DNA of 64,000 bases from Ceratobasidium sp. AG-K (taxonomy: Eukaryota > Basidiomycota > Agaricomycetes > Cantharellales > Ceratobasidiaceae). Positions 21,257 through 58,404 of the stretch are shown piece after piece. The notes under the pieces were generated by a model. It searched no databases and was not told the origin of the DNA. It was given only the letters and a program-made list of their open reading frames with translations. Positions within the stretch are counted from its first letter, which is position 1. Each line of letters begins with the position of its first letter. A program made the position numbers and the translations under genes. The stretch spans positions 310,001-374,000 of the forward strand of contig JAWNGF010000003.1 in NCBI GenBank assembly GCA_037039685.1, given 5' to 3'.

Positions 21257-23015
21257 AGCCTGTCGGCACCATACGGTTTACCCTGTCGCGTAGCTTTCAC
21301 TGCTCTTTTCTTTCTTCTTATTTTTTGTTTCTTCCTTTTTGTCTTCTTGTTTACGAAATCAATACATGCGTCCAACCGTTTGTAATACTGTTTGCCGGTA
21401 CCAAACTCGATGTGAGATTAGGATTCCTAACGCATTTCATCTAAATGTGCTATCTCTGTGAACACACACTTTGACAATGAGTCCAATCATAGAAGGTAGT
21501 GTATACGTGGAGGTGAATCAATCTCGCCAAAAACAAAAACGAAAACACGAAAACACGAAAACGTGAAGTTTAGAACATGGGCAAGCTTTTGTTACACCAA
21601 AACCCAGAGACTATTCAGAAACATGGATACATGTCAAAACGTGAGCTCAGGCGGTCCCAGTCAGTCTATACAAAGAAGAATGGCTATGCCAAGCGACAGT
21701 GAGCACATAAACAAGGAAGCACTCTTTTTTGGCATCGTCTGTGGCCCATCGGTTGGGTCAACTCAAGCAAATCCGCGCCAGCTGGGGAGCACTTAGAAGC
21801 GCCCACAAGCGCGGGAGTACCGGAATCTAGACCCCCCCCCCCCCCAAGCGAGCACGTGAGAGAACCAATGGCTCTGCTAACCATTACCTTATCTTGGGAG
21901 CACGGGACACGCTCAGGAGCTCGGCGAAGTGTGAGGACCATTAAAATCATCTCTTGACGGCACACGGGTAAGGGTATGCAGTCACAAAACATCCTTATAT
22001 TATGCTAGTATACATGGTGATACAATACATATGTAGAACCAAAACCCCATCACGTCACATAGTACAAATCTCCTTACAATAGACCGTTATTGAGGCCGTC
22101 CAAAAACACGGCATGCTGTTTCGCACGTAGCCCAGCTAACTATTCAATAATTGGTTAGGTTGCAGCTCCGGTTAGGGTTAATGTACTTACATGCGCTAGG
22201 TAGAGAGTGAAGGATGTCGAATCGTAGCTACACTTATATCAGTAAGCAGTGCAGGCATGTCTGTACAAAATAGACTCACCGGAGTGGTTGCTATTATTGT
22301 GGGATGTCGCCAGCACAAAGTAGACCTTGTGTCGAGGATGGATCTAATAGGTCTTAAATGTCGAGACGGAGTGTTGTTGGTGCGGCAAGATCTGGTGGTT
22401 TGGTGCAAGACGAAGCAAGGCCCTCCGCCATCGATAAAGCAACTTGACATGGGAGCTAACTCGCATGACATTATTGTCCTCGCTCGTCGTCGGCTTCGCC
22501 GCTCCGACCACGCAATTGAATAACTCCAGCGCGTCACCGCGTCAAGTGCAACCAAGCGTATTTGGCCTGGTTGCATTACTCTAGTGGTGCCTCGAGACAG
22601 GCCACAGCCTGTCTTGACAGCCGCGGCTCACCTGCAAAATTAAACAAACCCCGAACACACCTTGAATCCCCGAGTCACTTTCTCGACGACTTGAAACCAC
22701 AAGCAATAGCCCTGGTCAGCTTTATACAGCCCAAGCCCCTTGGTGAGTCATTCACAGCCTCTCGGTGATATGATATGTACAACCAAGGCTGTAATATACA
22801 CTTTTCTTACAAACAAATATTATGTGCATATAAGATATGTGGGTTTGCCTATAATGCTTTTTTGTCTTGATGCTTGTGGGTAAATCCGTCGCTGGTGTGC
22901 GTTGAAACGGTTCAGTGCTCCTGCGCGCTCCTCAAGCCTGACCGGTGGTCCTTTATCTAAGCGAGCACGTATAAGCAAACCCGTGCTCATTAGCCCCAGC
23001 CCAATTTGGTGACGC
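21257..23015. other. No supported gene
   Basis: Only short, motif-free ORFs. It contains a pure C run at about 21833-21845 and AT-rich sequence typical of terminator/intergenic regions between the upstream plus-strand gene and the end of the minus-strand SNF2 gene. Confidence 0.5.
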
Positions 23016-26000
23016 TTACGGGCGACTATGAGGGTATCTCTCAGGCGGTGGCGGCGGCGACGGACTGGACATAATAATTCGGCCACCGCTGCGTCTCGTC
23101 GCTATAGGTGGACTACTCAACGTGAGGGCTCCCGTTTGGGATCGACGGTCAGCCTCCTCCATAACAAGCATGCGGGAGTGATTGATCGCTGCCTTATCAG
23201 CGTGCTTCTTCCTTGCCACCTTGAATTGACCCTGAGAGCGAGCGACAGTACCTGCAAGGCGCGGTGCAGGCGCGCGTACGTGCTCCTGCAACGGACGAGA
23301 GCTAGAAGCTGCGCTATCACTTGCGCCAGACACACCACCGTTAGATGACGTCCTCACAGCCGGGAATGGCCGCGCTGATGCCTTGATCGTCGTCGATGAA
23401 CGCCATGTTTTTGGGGGTACCGCCGGTGCAGTGACGGTATGCGGCGTGGATGCCGGAGGCGATGGAGTACGTGGGTAGCTCGAGGACGTACTTTCCTTTT
23501 GCACGTGCTCTTTGTCTGGCATGAAGTCGCCCCAGTCCATTGTAGCGTCATCGGAACCAATCCAGGCGTGGAGAGCAGCTTCCTCCATCTGCGAACGCGG
23601 TGCCACTCCCGCCTTCGGTCGCGCTGTTTGGTTTGGTAAGTCCCTCAATATATATCCTACAGGGAGGCGAATCGACGGAAGGCCGAAAGAAGGAAACTCG
23701 ATGCATAGCAGGAGAAGGCGGAAGAAGGCGGGGGAAGGGGGACCGGAGGGAGGGGAGGGGGGTGGAGGGGACACGAGCGGGGACACGAGGAGGTAAGAAG
23801 CAGATGTCTTACCGGGTGTTCTCTTGTTGGGTTGCGTATTGTCATCCATTACGGCCGTACGCTTGCCAAGGATCTTGTCTGACGGTAAAAAAGGTGCAGC
23901 GATCGATGAAGCCGATCCAATATCGATGAGCGAGCTTGTCACCTCAACAAGTGTTGGCGTTGCCGCCGCGGGGTCAATGTTGGATGTTGTGGCGCCTGGT
24001 TGCAACGATACAACACCGCACCGGCGGGCGGCACCGGCATCGGCATCGGCATCGGCATCGGCATCAGCATCGGCATTGGCACTGACGGTGTCATTAAGGG
24101 GCGTATCGGCTTCCGCAGGTGCGATGGCTGGCATTACCGCGTTGCAAACGCCAGCGGGCATCGAGTACGGCTCTGCAGTTAGGACGTCGTGAGCACTCAT
24201 CGGAGTTGATGACGTTAAGATGGCTGCTGTACCTGGAGCCTTACGAACCAAAGGGCCGGGAGAGGCGGCGCTGCTAGTAGAAACGGGCTGGCCGACAAGT
24301 GGTTGTGAAGTTGTCGTAATGGTTGTGGCAGTAGGGCTCGACGTAGGTGGTTGTCCCCCAGGCACATGGGAGAGGGCATCGGCTAGTGATGTAACCGAAT
24401 CATTGCACAAAGTTACCTGCGATGCCTGGATGATCTCGGGCGCGGGGTTCAGGCGGGGCTTGGCTTGCTTGCGTGCTATTGATGTCGCTTTGATCGAGCG
24501 TGACGTTGGTGAGACATGATCGTGCTCGACGACCGTAGCCAATGAGACGTGCATAGCTATGCTTCCAGACGTACGCGCCTCGTTCGTCGACGACTTCTTG
24601 CTGCGCGCCGTCGTTGTTGCCTCCTTGGCCGTCTTGGGTTTCCTCTTTGCCTTTGGCGCCTTGTCCTTCTTGGCCCTCCGGCTCGCTGTCGGCTGTTGTG
24701 GAAGCCCGGCGACCGCCTCGTCGTAGTCGAACGGTCGAGCGCCGTCGGCTGCATCCTGTTGCTTCAATCGGCGGGGGCGCAACACGTGACCTGCCGGTGC
24801 GCGTGAGAGGTCGCGCCTGAAGTGGCTCATCGTCGTTCGAAGCGGCGCGGCGCGAAGGATCGAAAAGTTGTATCGCCATCGCTTTCATTTGTGTGAAGTG
24901 GTCCAGCATGAGCAGTTTGCCGTTGGCGATTGCCGAAAGGATCTCGTCGACCGTGCCACGTATGTAAACAAAGTACACGTGGACAATCATCGTCTGTCCA
25001 GGTCGCCGTGCACGCCCAATCATTTGTCTGATTTCCATCGCAGACCAAAGACCGCTCTGGTGCGAACGATTGTTAGCATACGTTGTGAAAGCTCATTCGT
25101 ACTTCTAACACGAAACGTACGAGGAAAATGACGACCGATGCCATCGTAAGATTGAGGCCCGTTGTACCGACTTGACTGAGAAGCATGACGTGAGTGTCTT
25201 CTGATTTCTCGAAGTCGGCGATAGCCTTGTCGCGGGCAGTCATCGACATATTGCCATCGTACTCGATACACTTGTGGCCGCGTATCGATAATGCCTTGTG
25301 TAATAAAATATGCATAAGCATGGAGTAGAACGCTGCATGAAAAAAATGAGGCGGGGCCAACAACCAGAACTCACTTTCTTCATGATTTGACGATGCAGAT
25401 CGTATACGATGAAGACAAGGACCTTGCGCCGCTTCCCCGTTGGGTTGGACCCGGCGGCGACCTCCAGCCCAGTATCTATCGTCCCATCCTCGCGGTTGAA
25501 AAAGAGGGGTGGTGCATCGGGATCATCGTAATGTTCGATGAGCTGGAGGGTCTTGAGCAACTTGGACGAGCCCTCGTCTTCCAGGTTCTCCTTGTTCCAT
25601 TTTTCCCAGAACCTCTCTGGCGTTTGTCGCGCGGATTTTCCGTCAGTTTCTGTGCTGGAAGCTGCAGTCTTCAGCTGCCAATGGAATAATAGGTGCTTGT
25701 AGTCGAGGAGGAAATTCTATAAGGTGGTAAGGGAATCAGCTCACGACTTCAAGACCGCAATCGACCAACGAAAAATCGAATGCGTCCGATTCAAACATCA
25801 ACTTACGCGCCATACTAGTGGTGTCTCCTCGTTCGTACTGGATGGAAGGGTTGATGGCAAACAAAAAGAAGTTGTTGAGCGCGTAGGACACAATCGCCAG
25901 GTGGGGCTTACCTTTCTTCCTTCTCGGCCATCAGCCGATCGTGCAGCCCCTGTATAGCATCCAGCTCGTCCTGTTTCGGACATGTCCACATGATCGACTC

Positions 26001-28831
26001 GATATATGGCTTGAGGTCGAGCACGAGCGTGCCATCGGGTGTTCGGGACTCGCTCGTGCGACGTATCACGTAAGGTAGTAGCAGCCCTCTCACCATGTCG
26101 ATCGATTCTTGCTGTACGTAATAGTTGCGGTAGCCTTTTATATCGCCCTCTAAGACGTATTGCGACACCGCCGGGCCGTGAGGATGGTTTTGCTGTTGCT
26201 TCGACACCCCGGCGATCTGTTGCATGATATCTTCGCTGTTCTCACGCCATTCCTTGCCGCGTGCGCGTTCCGACCGCATCATGTCCATGCAGAGCTCGTA
26301 CCCCCTCGCGCCGATCATCGATGACACCCGAAGAAGACGACCCTGAGCAGCGAGATCCTGATAGGGCTGATGAGCCATGTCGCAATACGGAAGATGAGAA
26401 GGAAAAGTGCAGAGGTCTTGTCGCGTACCTTTACTCCAGTAAATATCGGTGTCGCAGTGGCACCGATTCGCACCATCGATTGCGACGAGATTTTCATAAC
26501 GCCTGTTTGCGCACTATTCGTATTACGGAGTTGATGCAACTCATCGCACGCCATGACGTTGAAGCTTTTGCTGAAAATCGTCAGATTTGGGCTTTGGTGC
26601 GGCATGATCGATGGCGCAGCACCACCAAAACGTTCGTGGCGCCCGGCAACACCTTTTTCCGGTTGCTCGAGGCACGCGATGCTCTCCAACATGATTGTCT
26701 GCAACATTAGGGTGCGTGTGAGCGGCGATTTGTGCTTGTTGGGAAATCATCGATTTATATGCACGTACAGACGTCGGAACGAGGAGAATAACCCTTTGCG
26801 GGTGGCGCGCGTTCATGACTTCTTTGGCAAAGGTGCCGTCGTCGGCGAAGAAAGCCAATCTATCGTGTGTATCCTTGTTGTACTCGACGATGCGGAATCC
26901 GGCCGCATACGTGAACCGCTTCAGCTGGCTGACCCATTGCGCATTGAGAGTGCGTGGCCCGATTATGACAGAAGGTAAACGCGGAATCCTTTCTTGACCG
27001 GCGAAATATAGTCTGCCTGACACTAGGTGCGCGAGTAACAAAGAACATGAGTCGACGGCAATGCGTCTTGAACGGTAGTTAAGATGGACACTCACCACTT
27101 AGAAGCGGTGGCAGTGGCTCCTTGCGCTCCTGTAGCTCGATCAAGTGGACGAGCATGGCGATCGTCCCGATCAGCTCGACGGTCTTGCCCAGCCCAACCT
27201 CGTCGCAGAGGAGGGTCGGCTCAGTCTCCTCGCCGAGCGCAGAAGAAAACATGCGCTTGAGCATTACCACGATACCGACAAGCTGATGCCACTTGATCTC
27301 CATCTCATCGCTCATGTACGGTATCCTCTTGGCCTTACTGAGACCAAGCAACCAAAAAAGCTCCTCGGTCGAAGTGTCGGCAAACTCCTGGACGCCGAGG
27401 TCGTTGTTCGCCATCCCATCGAACAGTGCAATATCGTCTGCGGATGCGGCTTGCAACGAGTTTTTCATAACAAGTGTGATTTCCTCGATTGCATCACCAT
27501 CCGCAGGGAAATGCAATGAGCAATAGTCGACATATGCCTGAAGCATCTCTTCGTCGGTTGCAAGGCGGGCAACCTTCTTGGCTTTGCTTCGAACCACTTC
27601 ACATAGGAGCCACGGTTAGCTCACAGCGCCTGTATGAAGGACGTGCAAGAGAGCTCACCGCTACCATTATCTGCACGCTGGAACCCAAGCTCCTGCCAGA
27701 GTTTCATCACGGATTCGTTGTATCTCTGCCACATCCCAACCGATTTGTCGCCAGCGATCTTGGTGAGGTGTTTATATTTGTTCAGCAAACGATTGGCACG
27801 ACGTAAATGGATTGGGCAGGGATCCTCCGTTGCATCTGGGGCACCCCCCACGTCATCAGCCGGACGTAGAGCCACATTGTCGTCGACTTGCCTTGGATCG
27901 ATCGCTCGAGCTCGACCTTCGTGTTCTTCATCTTGGTTATTGTCGATCTGACCTCGCGCCGTCCGCGCTCCCAACACCTTTGAATGACACAAATGACAAA
28001 GCGACGATAGGGCGCTTTGAGTGTCCTCGTTGCCACAGTAAGCACTTCGTGACCCAAAAGCTCGACGCCAACGGCGTTAGCGACCTCGCCGTAGATTGTG
28101 CTGCCAGGAGGCGGGACGGGCGTATCGAATATCTTCAACTATCTCAGGAGGTCGACAGATATGCCGTCAAGGTGCAATACAATATCAGGAAACAAGATAC
28201 TCACGTCGTTGTCGGCATCTTGAATGGCATCACGCCATGCGTCCGCAGGACTGCGCAAACAATTCGCCATGATAGTGGCGATGGTGGACATAACACCTCC
28301 CGGTTGATTGAACATAGCGAGAATCGCATCGGTGTATAGTTGCTTGTCGTCCGATTGCTTGGCGTGCGCGATACAATTATTGTCATCGTCGTCCGGGTTG
28401 TCGCACGGCGGCGGCTTGCATCTTGTGGCCCTATTGTTGCCCCCTTGCGTACTTTTGCCGTCAGCGGTAGCCGCTGCCTCGTATCGGCGCTGCTGGTGTG
28501 CATGGACGCGCATGTCATCAATGAAACGAACCATACGCGGGAAGTTGGCTGCGTCGAAAGCATATTGGTATCTTTCCGGGACGTGACCATGTGCCGTCTT
28601 GGTCAGTACAAAGCCATCGTCAGCCGCGGCAAACCGAGCATCATTATCGTCTTCGCCGTCATCGTCGTCCGCGTCGTCTTCAGCAGCAAGATCCGGCGAC
28701 TTTGTAGGTTTGAGACCGCACAGACGACGGAACCGCTGGTTCGACCATGGTAGGGTATTAAACGGACCGCCATCGATGTTGACGTTGGCATCGTCATAGA
28801 AAATGAGGGGGGAAAGACCGAGCTGTATCAC
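23016..28831 (-). CDS. SNF2-family DEAD-like helicase/ATPase (chromatin remodeller type)
   Basis: The minus strand carries all key SNF2 ATPase motifs over several exons. Motif I is LLCDEVGLGKTVELIG (27200), Ia IIGPRTLNAQWVSQLKRF (26950), II MACDELHQLRN (26540), III RIGATATP (26460), and a linker reads LLPYVIRRT (26080). The C-terminal lobe has VLVFIVYDLHRQIM (25420), IEYDGNMSMTARDKAIADFE (25250), GTTGLNLTMASVV (25160) and QMIGRARRPGQ (25010). Box II is DELH instead of the usual DEAH. An N-terminal acidic region (28700-27600) precedes the motor. A long low-complexity tail with a lysine-rich segment and an Asp-Ala repeat ends at 23016. Such enzymes use ATP to move along DNA and remodel nucleosomes. 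The frame changes near 24750-24800 through an unplaced intron, and an upstream first exon (to about 29056) is possible. Confidence 0.85.
24034..24080. repeat. GGCATC hexanucleotide repeat inside the SNF2 tail
   Basis: About seven near-perfect GGCATC units, encoding an alternating Asp-Ala stretch on the minus strand within the disordered C-terminal tail. It is probably length-polymorphic. Confidence 0.85.
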
Positions 28832-31494
28832 TGAAATTGGTGTTCAGCGTCAGCTGTTTATCACACATCAGCGCTTTGTATATGGCGAAGAGCTTACTTG
28901 TATTTGCCGGAGATATTCACCTACTTTTCAAGCGGGACGATTGCGGTTCAAGAACGCAAGGCAAGCGAGGCGGAAACTTTGCAGATGGCAGCTTCGTAAC
29001 GAGCAATATATGATTGCACCAATGTACATCAATCGCGTTGTCTCATGAGCGATGTCCGGCATCTTGCCGGGTTAGGTACCGTATATTGATTAGTTTAGCA
29101 CCGGCGACGCGACCCACGGTGGCACGATACACGTGCAATGAATAGAGGGCAATGAGAGAGCGGCCTATGCTCGATCAGGCGGCCTATGGACCGGGAATAT
29201 ATTGCTCCCGGTGCATCCAGCCGCGCACCATGTGACACTCTCTTACGCACCGGAACTGTTGCAAATTATTCGCCAAACTGACGCAAGCCTAATTTTCCAT
29301 TCGGATGAGAACCGCTTGCTGCGGCGCAAAGCTTGTGTTTGCGTGAGAACCCATGGGCCTTGTGCTCGAGACATACCACAGCTGCCATACGGGTTCACTA
29401 ATTACCGTAAAATCGAATTCGGGACTTCGCACCAGTCATCGCGCACCATCTTCCCTCATGACATACGGCATCCGCGCGTGGTCATCCACGAATCGACTCT
29501 AATATGTGGCCGGCATGCGATGAGTGTCACGAAACAAAAAAAAGCGCAACCCAAATTCAGCAGCGGATCGCTCATAACAAACTGATCGAAGTGAGCACTG
29601 CTCCACCAACAATACGGCGTGTGCCAGCGTCCCTCTTGCGCTTGATCACGTGACTCTTGCCACCACTGGTGGGTTTAGGGTTTGACCCTCACACTCCCCA
29701 CTATCCCGTCCCGTCATTCGTTACTCCTGCCCTTGTCTGACCGGTTTTCGTTGTCGCGAACCTACCCAGTTTACTCCCATCCTTAACTGTCCTCCGTGGC
29801 ACACTGGACCCGGCGACGTATTGGACGTGTGAGCTCTAGCGCATACGCACCCTCTATCGCCACCTTACCTCTATCCCGACGGCCTTAGTGCCAAACACTG
29901 ACCTCCTATCCTCTGCCTCGGCTTGGGCTTCCGGACGACCGTCAATACGGGCGATGGTGCCACTTCCATGAATACAGAGCTCTATCGGACCTACCACGCA
30001 TCGACAGGGACGCCTGGCTCGTGCCGGGTGGTGTCAATTGATTAAAGATGTGTCCGGGTTGTTTTCGCGCTCACTCGTTTCCGCTCCTCTTTTCCGCAGG
30101 TTCCTGTCTCGGACTTTTCATGACTGCTGCGTGCCGTTCTCTACACCTGGGTTGTACTTATGTCTGGCTTTTGTGCGGTGTCCTCGTAGAGGGCCGCCTT
30201 GAAAATAGTATCAAGAAAAGAAAAAGTTGAATCATGTGAGGCGCTGGCACGAAACCACTCACGAGCTCACTTAATTTCGTTTACTCGTATCGCGCACCCA
30301 TCCAAGAAGGAATACACGAGATCCGGCATATACGATACATGAGATAAATCACCGAGCTTTACATGAGCTCGCGGTACACCGTGTGGCATGTCCGTTTTGC
30401 TTGCCGCCCGTATGCGCGGCACCAGGGAACTCCCAAGCTTTCATGATATGCTCCAAACTCCAACGGACTTCTCAAGTCCATTTCTGAAATATCGAGTCTG
30501 CTAATAGTCACTTCCCGGTGGCCCAAAGGCGGGCGCAATACACGTGGAATGCCCGATAGGATCAGTTTCACGGATGGTGAGCGCGACCAAAGGCTGCGGG
30601 ACCATGAAGTTGGACCGGGAAAAGGATGGTACGATCGACGGCATCGGAACAGGTGGGATACCAAAAATACGGTGACGCGCTCGGCCATTGAACACGGAAC
30701 GCAAATATAATTCCCCCATCGGGGCTAACGAACCATGGCAGCGGACGTCCTTTCATCAATTGAACAAAAAGCACATAACCCGGCAGCCGAAACCAAGAAC
30801 GGAATCGCTCAGTCATATGCGTATGAACACGCAGGCGTCGATCTCCGGTTTCTTTAAAGAGTGTTTGAATCGCCTACTAACCTTACATAGGTATATGGTG
30901 CAAACTCCTCCATCCGACACTCACCGATTGCCGACCGGTGAATACGACGCCTTTATGGATCTTCGGTACATGAAGCCTGCATAGCTTCAGAACGTACCGT
31001 CGTACATGGCGCAATCAATGGTAATGGTAATGAACACAGGGCGTGTTGGCACACATTCCTTACGCCGAACGCGTCGCGCCAACGCGGCTATCGATTGTGG
31101 TGTGCACGAGATAGCCGATGGTTGACGGTGCACCGTAGCGGGGCAGGAACAACAAAAGCGAACCCTTGATTATTAGGCTCCATACAAGCGCTTCTTCGCC
31201 ACGTTTGACAGTGTCCGGGGGAACGGAGGCGCACAACGTTCCGTGCTAGATGACGTCCGGAAGACATTCTATGACGAGCATGGGCGTACTATTCGCTTTG
31301 ATGTTCTGTAAAGAGGACGCAAGCACATGATAGATTGCTGGAATGCCATAGATATGGATATTCACGTATTGTGCACGTGCGATTGTGTAATTCATTGACA
31401 TGGATAGTAGGTGGCGAGGATTACATCCAGCAAGAAGGAAAGAAAGAAAAGCAATATTTTTCTCGCGAACAAAAGCAAAAAGAAAAAAGATGTA
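28832..31494. other. No supported gene; possible 5' exon of the SNF2 gene at left
   Basis: A minus-strand ATG at about 29056 (MPDIAHETTRLMYIGAIIYC) could begin the SNF2 gene, but a stop intervenes and no clean splice was found. 29.2-31.5 kb has only motif-free ORFs of up to about 127 codons on both strands. Confidence 0.4.
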
Positions 31495-45553: not shown

Positions 45554-46068
45554 TGCTTCTATAAACCACATGCGTTGTAGTGCTTGCATAAATTAATGGA
45601 TAGAAAATATGTATGGGAAAACAGCAAGAATAGCTATGAACGAAACGTGAACATCAGCAGCTGGAGTGTGCACCTGCGCCTCCTTCATATCTGAAGTACG
45701 ACCGAGTTATTCTGTGGACTTCCTGCACATGTACCATGCATAGGGGCTTGTAAGCGTATAACCTTACTTGATTGGATTATTGCATTCTGTACGAGGTACA
45801 CGAACTGTCCACACGCGTGACCTCGTTGCCCGCCTGAGGTGTATCGTTGGGCGCTGTGCACTTGACTTGCGTTACTCGCCATACCATTTCGATCACACCA
45901 TAATGGTTTACATTTGCGTTTTGACACGGGGTACTGTGTTTGTTCCCGATGATAAATCAGCTATAAATGAGAGCGGTATATCGAATATATTGTACAAGTC
46001 AAATCATAATCAAACGAGATGAGAAACTACTGTAACAAAATTGACATGGACAATAAAAGATCATCAAA

Positions 46069-49001
46069 TCATGTCGCAAAATATGGAACAACGGCGGCAT
46101 AAAGCCCCGCATGACAGTGCACGTCCCCTACCAGGTGCTCTGTCGGTAAGACCCACATCTGCCGGCAAACCGAGCAAGATGCCTTGACTACAACATCCTT
46201 CAGTGCCGCGCCGTCCGACGCATTGTGTGACACAACCCAATACTTCCGGCGACCTTCCGAGTGAACACCACTCTGTCGTCGGTCGTGCCAGCAGCTACAA
46301 ACGCGAAGGAGGTGAGGCAACTCCTTTCCCAAGGGCCGGCTGGCGAATGGCGAGAAAAGCCACATCAGGGGGCGCGTATTTCTCGCCATATAAATGATGT
46401 CAGTGTGGTTGCAAGCCACTCCGTCGCTGAGCCAAGCGTTCAAGATACTGTCGGAGGTAGGCTGCCCCGTCCCGGCGAGAGAGGTGCTGATACGTGCCAC
46501 AAGATTAACGAGGAATGCGGGCATCAGCTTCTTATTGAGGCAACCGACGAGCGAGTCAAGAGCACCACCACTGCCGTTATCGTGATGCCATTGAAGAGCG
46601 TAAGTAACATCAATAAATAAAACGCGTCACTGTAAATGGAGCCCACTCACGTGTTCATCCACATCTGCATCTCCTTTGTGGCATTGGGAGAATCGAACGG
46701 GTGCCCACAGCATATAAGGGTACCGCACGTAAACTTCGAGCGCATGATGATACCTTGCGCTGGTGCAAGCGTGCGGTTGAAGAACTGGTGGAGCGCGAAG
46801 CACATTGGTACAATCCATACGCAGCGGCGACCTAGTACTCACCTCCGGCGGTGCATAGGATGTTGTATGCGAGACTTGATACGCCTTTGCCTCTGAGAGG
46901 CCGTGCGTGATGTATACGACAAGCAGCGCGAACGTGTTATCGTCCCAGGGGCTTTTAATGCGTCAAAGCACGATAAGAAAATGGGTCACCAGGACAAACT
47001 ATCCCACTAACCAGTCTTGCAGGATATCACGCGTTTCGGCGAGCTCCTCAAGCTTCACCGGGTGTATATAACACTAAGTCATGGGCGATTTGTTATTGGT
47101 GCCGCCAGTAAACATAGCATTTCAAGAAACTCACCAACCACCTTTTTGCCTTCCAGCGGCCAGCTACCAACGCGCACAGATGTTTTGCTTGCGGCCAGAA
47201 CTGGTCAAGGAAATAAACAATCATCGCCAGACGCGGGGCAGGTTGATCACGTTGTTGAACGGTGAAACGTGGCGCAGGTCGCATGTAGTACTGAATAAGA
47301 TGTAAAGGTTCAGAACAGGCCGCTGAGTGGCATAAAGAATATACTAATGAGCGTACATACCGGATAGAGGCCTTGCTCCGCATGCTTCCAACAATAGGCA
47401 CAGGTAAAGTCCGCCAATATACGTGTCATTGACGAAGTATCGGCCAAGGTCGAGAAGTTGGTCAACACGATGCATGACCTGCTGCTGTTTGTGTTATACT
47501 CTCCCGGGTGGCAGAAGTAGTCACCGCAGCTTTGGCATAGCACAAGGCATTCTGCAATGGTGAGACCGCACAAGCAGCAATGTGCAGCTGTGACATTCGG
47601 CTGCTCCTGGACCGTCTCGCGCTGCAAGTCATTATTAATGACCTTGTGATTGCCTTAGTTACCGGTAACAAATACTCAATATGTCAACAATAACACCTAC
47701 CTCGTACCACACGTCCGATGTACCGTCGTCAGTCATGGATCTCATGTCAATATCGCTGTCAACAGTCTGCCAATACCGTACAGTTAATACGATCACCATC
47801 ATACACATCGCAGATGTAAGAACTTGCCTCATCCATCGCACGCATAATACGAAGCGAGCACTCCTCGACGTCTACGCGTAAGTGGAAATCGAGACAACTC
47901 GTTGTGTTCCTCGATTTGATCGGACGAGGATCGACATATACAACACCGCCGTACCGTCCGTGCACTTTCGCCGCCGCATCATAAATGAGGCCAAATGTGT
48001 CGCTACACTTCAAAGAGACACCGACGATGAGGAGAAGGTCGCTTTCCTCAGCGGCCTTTAGAAAGCTTGCACGCAGAGAACCACCGGGTAGCAGCTCGCT
48101 GTGCAGCTGGGATCGAACAGCCGGACGGAGAAAACGTAGTGAGGGGGCGCCGATACGCCGTGTGTTTGCGACACTCTGTGCTATAACAGTGATTTGATTC
48201 AAGGTCGGCATGTGAGCGGCGTGTTATGCAAAGAAAAGGAAACGTAACGAAAGAGCGAAAAGAGATAAGTGCAAGGACAGGAAGGAATACAGAAATAGAA
48301 TACTGGCACACGAATGGGTGAGAGGGGAAAATAATCAAGAATAGTGTTGACGAAGACTTCAAACTCACCCGCTTGCGTACATGGAGGGCATGCAACTGTT
48401 TGCCCGGCAAGAAGCATGTCATCGAACTGCATGGCGTCATGCTCATTGATGCCAGGGCAGGTCGGTGTGCTGCACTGCAACCAGCGATTGTCGCCACGTG
48501 CCCGCATAATCCAGTCGTCGGTGTCAGTCCTGCCTTGCGTCTCCAAACCGTGCCAACATGTCGTAAGACACTGAACGACCCGTTGCTGACCACGGACACG
48601 TTCAATGAACTGATGCAACGCACTTCGTGGTGCCGTTCGCGCTTGTATCCTCAGGGAAGCCATAAGCTTGTTGTACGCTGCAAGCTTTTCCTCGCGCAGG
48701 AATTTAGCTTCGGGGTTGGTGGTCGAGCAATCATCGACTATCGCGCGTAGGGCCATCTGACCATCGAACCTGCCGGAGGAAAGACTCATGGTATCATCAG
48801 GATGCTGTTCGTCACCGCTCGTCAGGTAGGCAAGGTGTCTATTTGTTTCGCTGTTATGCCACTTACCGGCAGACCTGTCGCGACCGACGCACCTGCGCCA
48901 CATAATATCAAGATTTTTTCGGTTTTGGCAATTGCTTCCACGACATTGCTACATCTGACCTCATGATCAGCAAAAGTGTAAACCTTTGTTCCGCTAGACA
49001 T
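46069..49001 (-). CDS. Degenerate sirtuin fused to PHD-like finger and the novel module
   Basis: Starts MSSGTKVYTFADHEV at 49001. The NAD-binding start LILCGAGASVATGLP is kept, but the DFR motif is absent after the intron. The QNID position reads TTCWHG and the catalytic His block is lost. CSTPTC/CPPC zinc cysteines, LLLIVGVSL and VVYVDPRP remain. It should therefore fold like a sirtuin but probably cannot deacetylate. An exon at 47620-47340 adds a PHD/ADD-like finger (CCLCGLTIAECLVLCQSCG, FCHPG, CAYCWKH). Then follow the module segments found in the 34.9-37.5 kb gene: APRLAMIVYFLDQFWPQAKH, FALLVVYITHGLSEAKAY, SRPLGKELPHLLRVCSCW, KYWVVSHNASDG and CSVCRQMWVLP. The frame is consistent through many short introns, so it appears functional as a protein. 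Exact joins between 46.5 and 47.3 kb are tentative. Confidence 0.7.
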
Positions 49002-49210
49002 GTTGAAATAAAGGATCGTAGCACGAGCGATAGCGAACAGAACTGAGTACAATGTCGATCACGGTGTTGCGAAGTATTGTTGGCCGCACAGTTTGTTATG
49101 AATGATGATTGTCATACGGTCATGTGACTCAGGGCTACCTCGTGTCACGCTAACTTACTTTCGCGCCACCCACCACGTTCGTCCCTATAGCACCCGTAAA
49201 CCAGGCAAAA

Positions 49211-49976
49211 ATGCAAAGGCAGATTGGTCAGCCACGCGTAAACGGCAACATGTCGTCCAAGGCCCAAGCATTAGCGAGCAGACAAACAATGCAGGAACGT
49301 CCAACCGGACAACAGGTAAATATCGGGTTCTAGACGATCTTGCATTATCCTAGTGTTGACAATACCTTTGATACCCGTCGCCCAATTTTCAGCATCCACT
49401 TGCCATGCCACAACCAGGTAGCAACATGTCGCAGAAGGCACGAGCGGCAGCAGCGGCGGCTGGAGCAGCTGTGCCGACCGAAAGGCTGGATAATACGAGG
49501 GGTGAGGGCGCAAACAACAAGGTAAACCCAAAGCTTGCACTCTCCTTTTGCACGGTGTTATTGACAGCGTCACTGAACGCTTTCGACACGCAGAGTCGTA
49601 TTGGTTTGCCAAAGCTCGGCGGCAATATCTCTCAGAAGGCGCAAGCGCTGTCCGAGGCCGCCCGGAAGGACAACCGATCAAAAAAGCAGGTGCCACATCC
49701 AACGACGTGTGGGCTCGCGCCTTTTGTTGACCGTGAGTGTTATCCACAGCTTGCCCTTCGTGTATTGGTTCGATGACCTGAACATTGTCATTTCCAGTCG
49801 ATATCGACGAGTCGGACAGCGAGCTCATTGGTATGTCATAATGCTTGAATCAAACGCATTTTCAAACTCATGTCCAACATCTAAGCTGCAAAATAGATCA
49901 GAATTTGTACGTGCTGCATCGGGACTGCTTCTGTGGCATAATTGTAGCTGTGTGCTCTAATCTAGTAACAGATTGA
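49211..49976 (+). CDS. Small protein made of exon-encoded repeats (about 161 aa)
   Basis: Five exons (49211-49315, 49393-49521, 49594-49732, 49798-49830, 49897-49976) join in frame. Exons 1, 2 and 3 each encode a related segment: PRVNGNMSSKAQALASR, PQPGSNMSQKARAAAAAAG and PKLGGNISQKAQALSEAAR. Introns 1 and 2 are in phase 0, so the repeat is an exon-duplication unit. Exon 4 is acidic (DIDESDSELI), and exon 5 encodes a short hydrophobic, Cys-rich C-terminus (HRDCFCGIIVAVCSNLVTD). I know no family for it. The GN-x-S-x-KA pattern is basic and helix-prone, possibly a small nucleic-acid or chromatin-binding peptide, but that is speculation. It starts 210 bp from the start of the divergent degenerate sirtuin gene and may share its promoter. 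Confidence 0.55.
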
Positions 49977-50241
49977 TTGTACACCATCAATTGTATAATT
50001 ACGAAGTTGTTTGTGCATTGGCACGTTTGGCTGTGATTGAGTTCACTTGATTGTGTTGACCAGTTAAGGGGCGTATCTTCAACGTGAGGGATAGGGCAAT
50101 GAAGCGAAGGGATTAGATTACTTTTGTCAGTTGAGCGGGTTCTGGGTGCCCGAAGGTGACGCAACGAGCACACAGACATACATCGTGTCTCTGTGTCACA
50201 GCTCGATCATTCATCTAGCAAAATATGATAGATAAGAGCGT

Positions 50242-51835
50242 TTATTTGGCACAAAGGCAATGTACGACATGTGGGAAGCGCAACGAAAAAAAAAAACGTA
50301 ATGATGACATCTTGTCAATTGCCGGTTTCGCGCAATTGCTGGGCTTGTTGACCTGCGATCGTCCATGGCGTATCGTGCAACGGGCGTGTGCTTTGCTCCT
50401 CGGCACTACGTCGGGCGGGCTATGTCCGATGTCACTCGTACTGCATGAGAATGGCATAACTCCTGTAGCGCTCACCAAATACTTGATACAAACCATTCTC
50501 GATTCGTCAAACGAGAACGCTCCCATATCCCGGTCCCACGGCTCCTGCATAACTGTTGTCCCGTGCGCGTGAAGTAAAGTACGCCGGTCGATGAAAATAG
50601 CAACGTGGAGTTCCAGGCCGCAACAAGACGAGCGATAGAATCCAAACTTCTCATTGAACGAAGTTCCCGCCCACCTTGAATCCCATCGCCCAACTTTATC
50701 CCAGCAGCCGCAAATCGAAGGGACCATGGGCAAATCGAAGCCGTACGGTCGACTCGTATGAGGCGCGTGCTCGAGCTTATAAACCTTGAGCGGTTCGCTC
50801 AGCCAGCTAGCGCGCTCCATGACAATGAACCCTGTATGTGCGCGCGCCTCTGGTGATTTTGCCCAAGTACGAAGCAGTGAGCCCTTGAGTGCTGCTGTGA
50901 AGTAATATAGGTGAATAAAGAGCTCGGGGAGGATACAGATGATGTCGGGCGGCAAGACAGCAGGTACAGATGGCATGACAATTGAGTGCCAAGGACGACT
51001 ACATAGCAAGATGTCACAGTGGTAATGTGGTAGTGAGGCTATCGAACGCACCAGTTCAAAGTATCGAATATCTTCATCAAAGCGCTGTTGCGAAAGAGGT
51101 TAACAGCGCAGCTGATCATGAACATACGCGCTGTCACAGCATCTTTTGCGAGGTGGGTGAGCGCCTTGACATGATATCTAATAAACTTGTCTTCAGATGT
51201 ACGGGATGCACCCCCTTTGTCCTTGTCTGTCGATATCCACCAACCACCACGAGGGTCGCTCTCGGTGAGGAAAACCAATGCCAAATGGTATGGTGCATCG
51301 GGAAGGAGTCTTAGACCGAATTAGGACAGTTGCATTGCGAGATCAAATCACTTACTGTTTATGTATAATGTCCGCCTCCGACATTTGCACTTCGTCACCG
51401 ATCTTCCTCACGTATGTGACGATGTTGATCTCAAATACGGAAAGAGCTGCGCACAGTTGAGAGACCAACGCGTCGGCAAGCGTCTGTTGGACGCCAAGAT
51501 GGAAAACGACGAGTACCAGAGATGACTTGACCGACAAGCGTCGTGTCATTCGCGAACCACGATTAATAATGTACTGCGAGCAAAGTTAATACAAAGCCTA
51601 ACGCGATGCACAAAAGTTCTTTACGAACGTCTGGCGCGGCCTGCACATCTTGGGACAAACATTCTGGGCACCGGAAGATACTTCGCCTGTCGTGCACCAT
51701 TGTCGCGGGAATGGTGATGCACGCTTCAGTGGCCGTAAGGTCATCCTTGTGCTCGCCCATTACATCATAGCAGAAGCCACGATGACACGATGAGCAGTCA
51801 ATAATACAGCCACCGTCATCGCAGTAGAAACAATA
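50242..51835 (-). CDS. PHD/ADD-like finger protein with the novel module (third copy, 5' incomplete)
   Basis: An exon starting at 51835 encodes CFYCDDGGCIIDCSSCHRGF, then C and FRCPECL. The Cys/His spacing is like PHD/ADD zinc fingers that read histone tails and like the finger in the 46.1-49.0 kb gene. Following exons give SSLVLVVFHLGVQQTLADAL and VFEINIVTYVRK, the counterpart of ILLVVCHHSSARFEARALAG in the first sirtuin gene. Next come ESDPRGGWWISTD, a helical block (MFMISCAVNLFRNSALMKIF) and a final large exon to 50242 with ICGCWDKVGRW and CCGLELHVAI. No sirtuin domain was found upstream, so this may be a sirtuin-less paralogue or its 5' exons (52.0 kb or further) are unrecognised. I recall similar multi-exon proteins from Agaricomycete genomes as uncharacterised; this was not checked. 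Confidence 0.6.
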
Positions 51836-52355
51836 CTACATGAAAGAGTGTTAGTCCTTCGTGCACTGCGAATTCAGATGGTATCAGTAGCTCAATGAGA
51901 GAGATTGGAACACTCATACCGTCACAAGGAAGAGAGATACGGTGCGAATATTATTGGACTGGGGCAAAGTTAAACGTGTAACATACCCGGTCTTTTGCAC
52001 GGTTGAACGTAATACGAATCTTTTGCTCTGCAGAGATGCGACTTTGAGTTTGGCGACATTGCCACGGCAACTAACTTACGTGAGCGATCTGCCATCGTTG
52101 CGCTGTCGTTGTCTGCACGAGCAGCGCGCATTTGCTTGCTTTTATTTGTTCGTGACAGGCAGCGCCAAACACGCGAATTTGCTCGATTTTGGGTGCTACA
52201 ATATCACTGTTTTGTGCGACAGGGTTCATGGAACATGTATGAACAATGATAATTTGTGTGCTGCTGTGCGCCGTAGCGAAAGGTACATATATAAATCGTA
52301 AAAATAAAAACAAAAACATACACCACAAAACAAAAGGCAATCATAGCAGGGCTGC

Positions 52356-53823
52356 TCAGTCAACGCGTCTTCGCCACACAGGCCGTGCACTACGTGTCGC
52401 AAGGTCTGTGTCAGCCATGCGCGCACGAAGCTCGTCGTCCTCGGGCGTCGGCCAAGCAGCGCGACTTGGCGACAAATCCCGGCCTTCGCGGATACCCCCC
52501 GACGCGATCGCCACTCGCAGTTGCATCGAAGCCCGCGACGCCTCACGCGGCTGATCGCGCGGCAGCTGTGCGGTGTCCATTTGATCAGCATGTGCATCCA
52601 CACTCGGCGTAGATCCATGAGCGGGAGCGGAGGCAGAAGCACCGGCAGAAGTGGCGGCCGCGGCAGTGGGCGGAACAGGCGTCGCGGAGAGCATGTCGGC
52701 GTCAATGACGACTCGCGGCGGTGTATCCGGGTTGACAACTACACCGCCCGCCCGCGGCACATCTTCGGTGCTGGCGCCAGCTAGTAGACGCTGGACACTT
52801 GCGACGAGCGCCCAACCATCATCGAGCACACGGCGCGCGTCACCAACGACTTGTGCAGCATGTGCACGAAGGACTGTTATTTGTATGAGACATTAGGGCG
52901 TTCCTGTGTGTGTTGTGCTTGGTACGGGCAAGGACTTACCTATCGCCGTGGGGGGGGCAGCAGCATATGCCTCAGCAGACGCCTCAGCAGGAGCCGCAGC
53001 CAGTGCCACTGATGGTGGTGGCACGCCGGTCGGCAAACCTGACGGTGCCGCGGGCGGTGTGGCGGGGACATCCTGTGGTGCGCTTGCCGAAGACGACGCA
53101 ACTGGTGTACCAGCACCGGTTGTCCCGGCGACAACTTTGTTACCGCGAACCTTGCGTCAGCTTCACGGTCCGAACGCCATAATTCAAAGCTGCCTACCTC
53201 CCTCGTCGCGACTGCTCATGCTCATGTCGGCTTCGTAGCCTTCACCAGCGGCTGAGTCGTTTGCGCCATCAGCGGTCGACTGTAATGGCGTCATGCGCGG
53301 AATCTACATTTCAGTGCTATACGTTATACCAACAAAATATGTACGCGATGGTAACTCACTTGCGTCAGCGGCCATGGACTTTGATTGTCCGTCTCTTCTT
53401 CCGCCGCAGAGACCTCTGTGTCTTCGCCTGGTGGGGTTGATGTGTTCAACACACCATCCACCCCAGTGGCATCATCACCGCCCACCGCCTCACCCAAGCC
53501 CACGGCAACATCGTCGGCGGCAAGTGTCGGATTGCGAACGACACGAATCGTGCATGCGCGCCGCTCCTGCCAATCATGGGGAACCACCGACGGTGGCACG
53601 ACGGTGGAAGTGTTGGCTGTGGTGTCAGGTGGCGAAGAACCCGTTGGCGATCGACGCTCTGGCGCCGGGCCCGGGTCTTGTGTCGTTGCGTCAGCATCGT
53701 CGCCGTCGCGCAGAGTCTCGGACTGCTGACCTGTCTTACCAGCCGACACCACAGACCTCTTGGACGGCCGTGGCAATGACGCTGGCGGTCGTGCTTGGGC
53801 AGTCGAGGGTGCTGGCAAAGCTC
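52356..53823 (-). CDS. Disordered Pro/Ser/Ala-rich coding region, uncertain
   Basis: Long minus-strand open frames (53823-53324 and 52829-52356) have the biased composition of disordered protein, for example PPASLPRPSKRSVVSAG and ATSAGASASAPAHGS. No ATG begins the first one; it opens directly after the stop of the RFTS-like gene at 53827. It may be a C-terminal extension of that gene reached through an unplaced intron, or a separate small gene. GC-rich sequence can give such open frames by chance. Confidence 0.3.
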
Positions 53824-53826
53824 GGT

Positions 53827-54919
53827 TCAATTGTGCAGCCCTTGTTGACGAAGAGCTTGGCCCGCGGCAGATGATGCCATGGTGGATGCCGATACGACCC
53901 GGCGCTTCTTCGGCGGTCGTCCGCCGTCCACGACATCGTTCCTCGCGGCTGCACTCCTACCGGCAGATTTCCTGACGCGCGCATGACGCGCAGAGCTATC
54001 CTCCTTCGCGTTCGATTGCCCCTCGTCGCCAACTGTGCTGACCCGCGCTTTCCCCTTGCCCTTCGTCGCAGGTTTCGTCACAGACCGCTCGTTGTCGGCG
54101 CTCCCACCCGTCCCTTGTCTCGCCGGCGCCTTCCCTTTCGACTTTTTCTTCAATTTGCTCGAAGTGGCTTGCGTATCGGTGTCGACTTCGTCGCCTGCAC
54201 CGTCCGACGGCTCTTCCTCGGTGTTGCTTGCCAGAAGGTGACGTTGCAGAACGTGGTTCCAGTCGCGCACGAGGTGCCACCATTTCGGCTTTGGTAGCGA
54301 AGGGTCGACCATCGTAAAACCTGCTGGCTGCCCCCCCCCGTGGTGCTTGCTCCAGTCCTGAACGACAACCCGCCAGGTGTTTGCATACTCGTCCACAGGG
54401 TTTTGCATGACATATGCATAGTTGTTTCTCGTATGTACCCAGAGTATGGACTCTGTGCTATAAAAGGAGGGATTGTAATGAATCGCGCGGAGGTGTAACA
54501 ATGAAACTTACCCATCGCGCCACGACGAGTCCGCCTCAAGAAACATCCCAGTGATACCCGTAATGATCATGCGCTCGTAATGCATATCACCAAAGTCATC
54601 GAGATCCCAGAAGCCGCCTTGCATGTGATTACGGGACTCGCCGCGCAGGGACGCGACAAGACCTTCCATGCGAACGTCACGCCAAAACTCGTCTGTCGAA
54701 TCATTGTACAACGGCTTGACGTACTTGCCCTTCTTGTAGAACTTAAACCAGGTAATCGTCCGAACGCGAGCTATCATTAGGGTGGGTACTTTGTTATTGT
54801 GATTTATATGGTTAATGATATCACTTACATAGCCCATCTTGGAGGGGTGGCGCGTTCATCTCTGGCACCAAATCCGTACTCTCAGGAAAGACTTGAAACC
54901 TTTCGAGATCATGCGACAT
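53827..54919 (-). CDS. RFTS-like domain protein with basic tail (copy A)
   Basis: Three exons (54919-54829, 54770-54512, 54457-53827) join exactly in frame to about 326 aa. The N-terminal half reads RVRTITWFKFYKKGKYVKPL, GLVASLRGES, MIITGITGMFLEAD, ESILWVHTRNNYAYVMQNP, VDEYANTW. This order (a 'R-x-L-x-F' strand, a small-residue strand, then 'I-W-x-T-x-x-A-Y-x-L-x-x-P-x-x-Y') resembles the replication-foci-targeting (RFTS) domain of fungal DNMT1-type proteins, though distantly. The C-terminal half is disordered and strongly basic with a likely nuclear signal (RPPKKRR), consistent with a nuclear, DNA-associated protein. The divergent gene at 55213 is a paralogue. No methyltransferase domain is present. 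Confidence 0.6.
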
Positions 54920-55212
54920 CTTGATAGCGAAAAACAACAAAGAAATGCAGGGATGTTGGTGATGGAGGGCAGGAGATTGCTTACCAGGCACGTGATGCGT
55001 CTGTACAAGTCATGTGATCTGACGCGCGTGTTTGGCAGCCCTGTGCCTTATTGTTGCTCACTCTTCTCTTGTTTTCCTCTATCGATAGTCGTCTTGCAAC
55101 TGTATAGTATACATTCCCGAACTGTAAATTCATGTAAGATATTCATTGTAGTGAGGATTGTGTGGTGTAACTTAATTTGTCGACCCACCTTTAAATATTA
55201 GCTCAGACAGCA

Positions 55213-56177
55213 ATGGATGCAGAGCACGCGCCACTTGGTACAAGCCGTCAGTCAGCAGATATAGAGACGACTCTCCTGCAGGAGGAACAACTTCTTCTTG
55301 GGCCAGCCGATCGTAGGTGTGCAGGTATCTGCCGTTGGATGTCTAACATTGACATTATGGCAGGCTTCACGCGTGTACTTACCCTCTTTGAGTTTCGGCG
55401 TGAGGGTGTACCTGTTGTGCTCAACGAAGACATGGTTTTGCAGCGCCGATTTGATGGCCTTGAGGTCATAGGCGTTGTTGGAACAATCTTCGGCAAGGAG
55501 GGTTTGTTCGCCCAGTGTGGATGGTTTGGCAATCATGACCTCGACTGGTTTTGGTGCCGTATTGACGGTATCCGTTCAATTGAAGCGCGAAGCGACCTTC
55601 GATTCCGCGGTGGGTTAGTAAATTAATTCTTTCTCATTCCGTCGTTGTGCAATCAGTGAATTCACAGTTTTTCGTATGTTCTCATGATAATAGCGAGCTG
55701 TGTGTTTGGCTTGACACACCCCATGGCGACTATGCAATGCTGCTGCCGCACACCGACTTCATCGACATGTGGGAAGAGTCGCTTCATGCACTCGGTCAGT
55801 ACGGACATTCTGCGAAGTCACACCAGTGGCCACCATCTGGGGTCCGTCCGCCATGGTGGGACGATCACTGGCGCAATAGTTGGCCGTTCGATCGGTCGAT
55901 CAGGGATGCCTTAACGCCGATGGACATTGACACGTCTGCGGGGCAAGGTGGTGTGGCAGAGGGAACGGGCAGTAATACGACAGGACACGCGTGGCAACGC
56001 CTTGGTTCACGTGGCGACACCGAAACCCAGGTGAACCGCGTGCGCACTTACATCAACGCGACCCATGGATTATCACACCCGACACTGGGCTTTTGCCAAC
56101 GTTGGGCGAGCATGACTTTCAAACACAATGAAGCATTGTTGGTGTTTTTTTTTTGGTTTTCTTTTTTAATCATGTAA
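55213..56177 (+). CDS. RFTS-like domain protein (copy B)
   Basis: Exons 55213-55312, 55364-55609 and 55657-56177 join in frame to about 288 aa. The domain parallels copy A block by block. RVLTLFEFRREGVPVVL matches RVRTITWFKFYKKG, DGLEVIGVVG matches EGLVASL, and RIDGIRSIEARSD matches IITGITGMFLEAD. LCVWLDTPHGDYAMLLPHTD with MWEESL matches the I-W-x-T-x-x-x-Y block, and a Trp-rich PPWWDDHWRNSW matches PKWWHLVRDWN. Introns fall at comparable places. It lacks copy A's long basic tail. The same RFTS-like interpretation applies with the same caution. Copies A and B start 294 bp apart, head to head. Confidence 0.6.
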
Positions 56178-58396: not shown

Positions 58397-58404
58397 GGAA
58401 CTTC

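What the first reader, a model, noticed from the sequence alone, without database searches (positions are those of the whole stretch)
22996..56177. A ~33-kb run of chromatin and DNA-methylation type genes
In one stretch the sequence shows a SNF2 ATPase, two sirtuin fusions, a TET/JBP dioxygenase, two RING proteins, two PHD/ADD-like fingers and two RFTS-like proteins, plus an intact 895-aa unknown. These domain types are those of DNA-methylation readers, writers and erasers (DNMT1 RFTS, UHRF1/Dnmt5 RING and SNF2, TET), yet no methyltransferase is present. Such clustering is unusual for a fungal genome. It may be an accessory island or a large mobile cargo region acting on epigenetic silencing. 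That the genes cooperate is inference from position and domain content.
Basis: partly seen in the sequence, partly recalled or inferred. Interest (0 to 1): 0.9.

Follow-up and report, generated by a model that had tools for sequence, protein, structure and literature searches.

The report
Giant telomere-linked fungal mobile element
The cluster of chromatin-type genes is a block of about 35 kb, carried in many near-identical but often shortened copies through this fungal genome, that ends precisely where telomere-type repeats tend to begin and seems to carry its own chromatin toolkit.

Summary
The gene run is real, and it is a mobile block rather than a static island. Window 50,001-56,250 occurs in 8 near-identical copies (99-100%, window included) on 6 contigs. 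At 12 sites (window and 11 others) copies end at the same bases, '...CCCCATTAACC' near 58,183; a CCTAA-type unit follows at 7 of 12, then other sequence. (TTAGG)n is the telomere repeat reported for Rhizoctonia. Copies are 5'-truncated at many points; 3 of 5 short-copy 5' ends fetched abut telomeric tracts, one with 13 CCTAA units. SNF2-type and 895-type genes recur as neighbours in four diverged lineages (14 of 16 SNF2-clade loci); one of these also has sirtuin, Tet_JBP and PHD genes. SNF2, one sirtuin, the Tet-like dioxygenase and a PHD finger are supported; one RING is plausible, RFTS weak. The PHD family also has a caspase/CHAT-like fold. Best reading: a terminon-like, telomere-associated giant element whose chromatin genes may manage silencing at chromosome ends. 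How it copies itself is open: no reverse transcriptase or transposase was found, and break-induced replication is a close rival.

The parts
22820..58187 (+). Giant element (called alpha here), 3' end on the right; 5' end not determined. The part left of 33.6 kb is seen only in the window and its segmental duplicate on C3
   Evidence: 22,701-29,500 is shared only with C3:89,992-96,773 among long matches
23016..29374 (-). SNF2-type ATPase, 14-exon model, disordered-looking C-terminal region; the model skips the exon with helicase motif VI
   Evidence: model; Helicase_C E 3.7e-7; INO80-type hits; relatives beside 895-type genes
31495..34297 (-). 895-aa protein, 3 exons; with SNF2 the most conserved pair
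   Evidence: AF2 model of relative P0001, pLDDT 75, no confident fold
34934..36117 (+). Sirtuin, catalytic motifs readable
   Evidence: SIR2 E 4e-26; 1-2 nt and 0 aa differences in 4 of 4 other copies compared
36136..37490 (+). Sirtuin tail module (separate gene or 3' exons of the sirtuin gene)
   Evidence: model; weak similarity to the PHD-caspase profile (probability 27%)
37696..37862 (.). MITE-like inverted repeat; the C17 copy has an insertion of about 1.05 kb here
41164..43161 (+). Tet-like 2OG-Fe(II) dioxygenase, 5 exons
   Evidence: PF20515 E 4.4e-35; its main exon scores the same 56.3 bits in 5 other copies
44350..44780 (-). RING (C3HC4) motif split by an intron
   Evidence: read; Pfam zf-C3HC4_2 E 0.04, below cut-off
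46069..49001 (-). Degenerate sirtuin joined to a PHD-like and caspase-like tail
   Evidence: no SIR2 hit at E<=1
50315..52229 (-). PHD finger plus caspase/CHAT-like domain
52356..55536 (-). Protein with weak RFTS-like stretch (about 54,367-54,457) and long low-complexity tail
   Evidence: model; 19-bit PF12047 match in diverged copies only
55213..56177 (+).
   Evidence: no Pfam hit at E<=1
56294..57996 (.). Tandem-repeat tail (84/167/251-base periods), interrupted by a dispersed repeat at about 56,767-57,003
58113..58160 (+). Stem-loop near the 3' end
   Evidence: fold z -2.28; the beta end folds no better than chance (z -0.60)
58173..58187 (+). Exact 3' terminus CCCCATTAACC followed by a CCTAA-type unit
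   Evidence: CCCCATTAACC in 12 of 12 sites (window and L053-L063)
58195..58398 (+). 5'-truncated hammerhead-like unit ending TAACCTAACCTAAC
   Evidence: Rfam gives no hammerhead hit
58907..59900 (+). 3' fragment of a diverged element (beta), ending CCCTATTAACCTAA
   Evidence: 100% to C7:652,137-653,135 and C14:20,628-21,621
59902..60172 (+). Longer copy of the hammerhead-like unit, dispersed in the genome
60168..60310 (+). Fragment of an alpha tail joined to TAACCTAACCTAAC on its 5' side
   Evidence: 98% to 57,955-58,095; sequence

Best explanation
The block is a giant mobile element of about 35 kb or more that belongs to chromosome ends in a Ceratobasidiaceae (Rhizoctonia-like) fungus. Shown here: many near-identical copies; one exact 3' end that usually passes into CCTAA-type telomeric units and then into different flanks; variable 5' truncation, in some copies directly against telomeric repeats; a head-to-tail array of such fragments; and diverged lineages that keep the SNF2 + 895-aa pair, one of them also sirtuin, Tet_JBP and PHD genes. 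Inferred: the 3' end is joined to an exposed telomere, the outer 5' end erodes and is healed by telomerase, and further units are then added, as described for the Terminons of bdelloid rotifers. Copying is either by a telomere-primed reverse transcriptase supplied in trans (hammerhead-like units that look retro-copied sit in the same array) or by DNA-level copying; I favour the first only slightly. Inferred too: SNF2 ATPase, sirtuin, dioxygenase and PHD protein let the element set its own chromatin state in subtelomeric silent chromatin, to be expressed or to be tolerated there.
For: Copies: 8 of 99-100% over window 50,001-56,250. In one search the matches of other loci that reach the end of the tail stop at q2184-2194, except the segmental copy on C3, which runs on. 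Junctions: 12 of 12 sites read CCCCATTAACC at the end; 7 of 12 go on with a CCTAA-type unit, 5 do not. The 11 flanks differ from the window's; two (L058, L062) share one repeat and two (L057, L063) are hammerhead-unit sequence. 5' ends: 3 of 5 short-copy ends fetched abut telomeric tracts, L065 with 13 CCTAA units. Control: two-unit CCTAA tracts occurred only at 58,385 and 60,159 in the 360 kb held. Telomere repeat (TTAGG)n in Rhizoctonia isolates (PMC7884421, passage). Hammerhead descriptor: 2 in the window and 1 elsewhere in 361 kb, 0 in 14.4 Mb of first-order Markov controls. Core pair: 14 of 16 SNF2-clade loci lie within 15 kb of an 895-type match, and 14 of 16 895-type loci near an SNF2-clade match (loci within a lineage are copies of each other, so the independent count is four lineages). 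Gamma has 895, SIR2, two PHD-caspase genes, Tet_JBP and SNF2 within about 27 kb at C4 and at C7. An 895-type protein runs into a SIR2 start in Ceratobasidium sp. 370. The Terminon description was read as passages in PMC6431247.
Against: No reverse transcriptase or transposase domain was found in the stretches scanned (some one-strand stretches were not scanned, and domains split by introns can be missed). The hammerhead-like motif is not at alpha's own 3' end, and Rfam does not recognise it. Genes lie on both strands and keep introns, unusual for RNA-level copying. Of the copies only the one at C1:9.90 Mb lies within 10 kb of a contig end (a diverged one starts at the end of C14). At C17 and at the inverted C4 pair the 5' ends show no telomeric repeats, nor do 2 of the 5 short-copy ends. 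5 of 12 3' junctions have no further telomeric unit. The C1 and C3 contig starts fetched show no clean telomere array (C3 has degenerate CCTAAC runs). The SNF2-bearing left third of alpha is known from one locus and its segmental duplicate only. The chromatin role rests on domain names.
Confidence: 0.72

Rival explanations
1. A Y'-like subtelomeric repeat unit: chromosome ends invade telomeric repeats at the inner edge of the block on another chromosome and copy it outward by break-induced replication. No retro-copying; the block has no machinery of its own. (This overlaps with the second copying route left open in the best explanation, so the two figures do not exclude each other.)
For: Copies keep introns, genes on both strands and 99-100% identity at DNA level. 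Junctions lie at telomeric units. No reverse transcriptase found. C3 carries a collinear segmental duplication of the region at about 243 kb offset.
Against: Short 3'-only copies of about 0.5-1.2 kb, two of them far from contig ends (C1:3.69 Mb, C8:2.02 Mb). 5 of 12 junctions have no telomeric unit beyond the common end. Partner genes conserved over SNF2 identities of 28-45% suggest a self-contained unit.
Confidence: 0.4
2. A classical giant DNA transposon of the Starship kind, with a recombinase at one end and the chromatin genes as cargo.
Confidence: 0.08
3. Assembly artefact or plain segmental duplication of one subtelomere, not a mobile element.
For: The two SNF2-bearing copies are a segmental duplicate on C3. 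The inverted C4 pair joined 5' to 5' could be a mis-join or a chromosome-end fusion.
Against: 11 further sites have the same end bases and flanks unlike the window's; segmental duplicates would share flanks, as only L064 does. Relatives of two of the genes occur in several copies in other Ceratobasidiaceae.
Confidence: 0.05
4. A static cluster of chromatin genes kept together because they cooperate.
For: The domain types fit a silencing system.
Against: Copy number, truncations and shared 3' end.
Confidence: 0.02

Closest known systems
Terminons (telomere-associated giant Penelope-like elements of bdelloid rotifers; passages in PMC6431247, and PMC5408684; the primary paper PMC5850863 is not held)
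   Same: Tens of kilobases, many diverse ORFs, 5'-truncated copies against telomeric repeats, 3' end joined to reverse-complement telomeric repeats, head-to-tail arrays, hammerhead-like motifs in the same array
   Different: No Athena-type reverse transcriptase found; hammerhead-like motif in neighbouring units, not at alpha's 3' end; chromatin-type gene set instead of the DEDDy, GDSL, GIY-YIG and Rep genes named for Terminons; a fungus
Y' elements (recalled) and subtelomeric RecQ-type helicase genes of fungi (PMC7473861, passages)
   Same: Subtelomeric type, multi-copy, bounded by telomeric repeats, carries a helicase-family gene
   Different: SNF2 rather than RecQ; several further genes; 3'-only fragments far from contig ends
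TET-carrying DNA transposons of fungi (KDZ, Plavaka and others; PMC12730594, abstract, outline and section 3.2 seen)
   Same: Mobile element with a TET/JBP-type dioxygenase, thought to counter methylation silencing
   Different: No transposase found; dioxygenase of PF20515 in alpha; far larger gene set. A separate element with PF12851 flanks the window
Starships (Pezizomycotina; search listing of PMC12134995 only)
   Same: Giant, cargo-bearing, fungal
   Different: No tyrosine recombinase found in the stretches scanned; variable 5' end

Membership tests
Terminon | Giant element of up to about 40 kb with several ORFs | tested here: met
   about 35 kb, 8 or more gene models; the left third rests on one locus and its duplicate
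Terminon | 3' end carries short reverse-complement telomeric repeats | tested here: met
   common end in 12 of 12 sites, CCTAA-type unit next in 7 of 12
Terminon | Copies 5'-truncated by stretches of telomeric repeats | tested here: met
   3 of 5 short-copy 5' ends fetched; not at C17 nor at the C4 pair. A sixth fetched place (L069) proved to be the edge of an insertion in the C1 copy
Terminon | Head-to-tail arrays | tested here: met
   window 58,187-60,310
Terminon | Hammerhead motif directly upstream of the 3' telomeric repeats of the element itself | tested here: not met
   descriptor hits in the window only in the neighbouring units at 58,287 and 60,041; no Rfam hammerhead hit
Terminon | Encodes a Penelope-like (Athena-type) reverse transcriptase | tested here: inconclusive
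   none in the frames scanned, but the 5' end of alpha is unknown and some one-strand stretches were not scanned
Sirtuin (34,934-36,117) | SIR2 domain with catalytic His and NAD-binding motifs | tested here: met
   PF02146 E 4e-26; motifs read
TET/JBP dioxygenase (41,164-43,161) | Match to the Tet-like 2OG-Fe(II) family PF20515 | tested here: met
   E 4.4e-35; HVD and a later His readable
TET/JBP dioxygenase (41,164-43,161) | Oxidation of 5-methylcytosine | not testable with these tools
   needs an enzyme assay; no solved TET matched by sequence
DNMT1 RFTS domain (52,356-55,536) | Match to PF12047 over cut-off | tested here: not met
   no hit in this gene; 19 bits against cut-off 22 in two diverged copies
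Caspase/CHAT clan (50,315-52,229) | Caspase-like fold | tested here: met
Caspase/CHAT clan (50,315-52,229) | His-Cys catalytic dyad | tested here: inconclusive
   Cys246 nearly invariant; the expected His place reads TE in most members, by my own reading of the model
Rolling-circle replication initiator (895-aa protein) | Confident fold or sequence match to Rep | tested here: inconclusive

The most novel reading that the evidence does not exclude
A new class of eukaryotic mobile element: a telomere-attaching DNA element without a reverse transcriptase, whose own machinery is the SNF2 + 895-aa pair (the 895-aa protein being an unrecognised initiator nuclease), copied one-endedly from a fixed 3' end, and which carries a sirtuin, TET-like and PHD-caspase toolkit to control the chromatin of the chromosome end that it occupies.
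Probability: 0.25. Interest if true: 0.95.

Novelty: new variant of a known kind. Interest (0 to 1): 0.84.

Why it matters
It joins two subjects usually studied apart: elements that live at telomeres and enzymes that set silent chromatin. If the reading holds, a fungal element of about 35 kb has its own remodeller, deacetylase, DNA-oxidising enzyme and histone reader, and helps to build and reshuffle chromosome ends of a group of plant-associated fungi. Terminon-like behaviour would then not be confined to rotifers. It also gives a clear test set (12 junctions, four lineages) for how giant telomeric elements copy themselves.

Tried and rejected
Static island: rejected by the copies. Pure segmental duplication: only copy B on C3 (L064) shares the window's flank. 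Terminal inverted repeats: none pairing the ends. Viral origin of the 895-aa protein: no significant match in the viral structure library. IS110-type recombinase as the top Foldseek hit of the 895-aa model (E 0.52, probability 0.03): too weak. First gene-finder versions had a wrong exon order or too many introns and were dropped; models were used. Rfam microRNA hits at 38,832-38,910 are below cut-off and reflect a palindrome. RFTS homologues: none. The first hammerhead script had a bug and missed the two window motifs; it was corrected. On recounting I dropped L069 from the 5' ends: C1:94,893-96,813 (q1-1927) and C1:104,048-104,310 (q1922-2184) are one copy split by an insertion of about 7.2 kb. 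Searches place the 5' starts of L066 and L067 at different tail positions, as the tail is repetitive. The 20-kb search of 38,001-58,000 was not scored and was replaced by smaller stretches. DNA searches score only the best candidates (38 of 144, 40 of 348, 40 of 65), so copy numbers are lower bounds; one search listed neither the window itself nor copy B. Literature on the telomere repeat is not uniform: PMC7884421 gives (TTAGG)n in its results but TTAGGG in its methods, and PMC12144256 used TTTAGGG for R. cerealis; the 13 CCTAA units in L065 speak for TTAGG here. Literature: the listings of the searches showed no title or abstract describing this element, in a library that lacks most subscription papers.

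Full report
What is there. The window is C3:310,001-374,000 of a 53.6-Mb, 17-contig genome. Homologues of two of its genes are named Ceratobasidium or Rhizoctonia solani (11 of 11; 20 of 21, one unnamed), so a Ceratobasidiaceae fungus is inferred. A self-trained gene finder and reading by eye give, from left to right: SNF2 ATPase (-), 895-aa protein (-), sirtuin (+), its tail (+), Tet-like dioxygenase (+), a RING motif (-), a degenerate sirtuin with PHD/caspase-like tail (-), a PHD-caspase-like protein (-), a protein with a weak RFTS-like stretch (-), and a tandem-repeat tail that ends at 58,187. To the right of 60.9 kb lie genes that look like core genes (LRR protein, HEM2, and in L008 ARF1, HIR1 and PPOX; recognised by eye, not searched).

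The block is multi-copy. Sirtuin and dioxygenase matches with equal bit scores appear on C3 (twice), C4 (twice) and C17, at equal spacing except for an insertion of about 1.05 kb in C17; further dioxygenase copies lie on C1, C11 and C8. Window 50,001-56,250 has 8 copies at 99-100%, counting the window, one 100% partial copy, and diverged relatives at 70-74% on C14 and C7. The SNF2 part was found only in the two C3 copies, which are segmental duplicates of each other: their right flank is the same (L064). The sirtuin coding sequence differs by 1-2 bases and no residue in 4 of 4 other copies compared.

One exact end. In one search the matches of other loci that reach the end of the tail stop at q2184-2194, long copies and short fragments alike, apart from the segmental copy. 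I fetched 12 of these junctions. Eleven have flanks that differ from the window's, and all eleven, like the window, read CCCCATTAACC at the end (L062 with one change just before it); L064 is the segmental copy. A CCTAA-type unit follows in 7 of the 12 sites (window, L053-L057, L060); in 5 it does not (L058, L059, L061-L063). Two flanks are fragments of a hammerhead-like unit (L057, L063) and two share another repeat (L058, L062), so the flanks are not all unrelated to each other.

The other end varies. Alpha copies begin at window positions 33,762 and 34,562 (C4 pair), 34,182 (C17), between about 35.8 and 42.3 kb (C1, C8, C11; from absence of SIR2 and presence of Tet-like matches), 55,422 (C1, right end), and within the tail for short fragments. 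Six places were fetched. One (L069) is the edge of an insertion of about 7.2 kb in the C1 copy, not a truncation. Of the other five, three abut telomeric tracts: L065 with 13 CCTAA units, L068 and L070 after the 3' end of a hammerhead-like unit (L070 with a degenerate tract); L066 and L067 do not. The C17 5' end and the inverted C4 5'-to-5' join have none. Those two joins look like fused chromosome ends or mis-joins. (TTAGG)n is given as the telomere repeat of Rhizoctonia isolates in PMC7884421 (passage); other statements differ. Before the junctions were fetched, two-unit CCTAA tracts occurred at only two places in 360 kb of held sequence, both in the window's array.

The array at 58,187-60,310. 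Inward from alpha's 3' end: a hammerhead-like unit ending TAACCTAACCTAAC, an unassigned 0.5-kb stretch, a 3' fragment of the beta lineage (100% to C7 and C14), a second hammerhead-like unit with the same ending, and an alpha-tail fragment. The hammerhead call rests on a descriptor (CUGANGA, stem II, GAAA, stem III with one mismatch, stem I): 3 hits in 361 kb, two of them these, against 0 in 14.4 Mb of Markov controls. Rfam does not support it.

A conserved gene set. A relative of the 895-aa protein finds 16 loci. The SNF2 query finds 16 loci of its clade and 4 weaker matches that cover only the C-terminal helicase part. In 14 of 16 in each direction the two lie within 15 kb, in four lineages (alpha, gamma, delta, epsilon) with SNF2 identities of 28-45% for the diverged ones; copies within a lineage are not independent. 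The exceptions are SNF2 at C1:47 kb and C8:221 kb, and 895-type fragments at C4:321 kb (a truncated alpha) and C4:4.208 Mb. In gamma (C4:4.163-4.190 Mb, C7:2.636-2.663 Mb) the same stretch also has SIR2 (divergent from the 895-type gene, as in alpha), two PHD-caspase genes and a Tet_JBP domain. Gamma copies are 100% identical over the 3.3-3.4 kb compared. Delta and epsilon showed no SIR2 or TET match. In Ceratobasidium sp. 370 an 895-type protein runs into a SIR2 start.

How it most likely works. Shown: presence at many sites at DNA level, a fixed 3' end at telomeric-type units, variable 5' ends, an array. Inferred: attachment to chromosome ends, erosion, healing and re-addition. This is what the review PMC6431247 (passages) describes for Terminons. 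Alpha fails one Terminon feature (hammerhead at its own 3' end) and no reverse transcriptase was seen, so I do not file it as a Terminon; it works like one. Break-induced replication between telomeric repeats explains much of the same and is the main rival. The chromatin role of the genes is inference from domains.

Limits. The 5' end is unknown. Pfam scanning of frames left out, within 13-59 kb, the + strand at 22,991-23,999 and 33,991-34,299, and the - strand at 13,000-22,989, 29,101-31,399, 34,401-34,801 and 49,901-49,999. Copy numbers are lower bounds. Letters of other copies were limited to 3-kb loci and short junctions. No other eukaryotic genome was searched at DNA level.

Noticed in passing
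window 1-1273 and L007: Part of another multi-copy element with a Tet_JBP (PF12851) domain, 94-97% to copies on C3, C7 and C14.
   Followed up: partly
window 3707-6221: Seven-exon gene that looks Plavaka-transposase-like by eye (recalled, not searched).
   Followed up: no
window 12185-15443: F-box gene at 13,511-15,443 (PF12937 E 7.4e-6) and a similar-looking gene on the other strand.
   Followed up: no
G000:C4:320972/320973 and G000:C17:158099: Copies joined 5' to 5' (alpha to alpha; alpha to another repeat): chromosome-end fusions or mis-joins.
   Followed up: partly
G000:C12:1574690-1574768 (L065): Interstitial telomere tract with 13 CCTAA units, about 0.2 Mb from the contig end.
   Followed up: partly
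G000:C1:96813-104048: Insertion of about 7.2 kb in the tail of the C1 copy; the two sides overlap by 6 bases of the query, as a target-site duplication would.
   Followed up: no
G000:C3:52-128 kb and 296-371 kb: Collinear segmental duplication at about 243 kb offset containing the element.
   Followed up: partly
G000:C11:697-699 kb and 1077-1080 kb; C2:2.625 Mb and C7:0.417 Mb: Two further sirtuin genes in near-identical pairs (99.5% and 98%), perhaps other elements of this kind.
   Followed up: no
G000:C12:59871, C1:9815503, C3:3921661: A second Tet-like (PF20515) family with nearly equal scores, two of three copies within 0.1 Mb of contig ends.
   Followed up: no
window 18335-18925 and 40106-40257: A tandem 130-base repeat left of the SNF2 gene recurs inverted inside the element.
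   Followed up: no
window 30092-30225, 37696-37862, 38818-38923, 56767-57003, 60313-60482: MITE-like or palindromic repeats; all but 38,818-38,923 were matched elsewhere in the genome.
   Followed up: no
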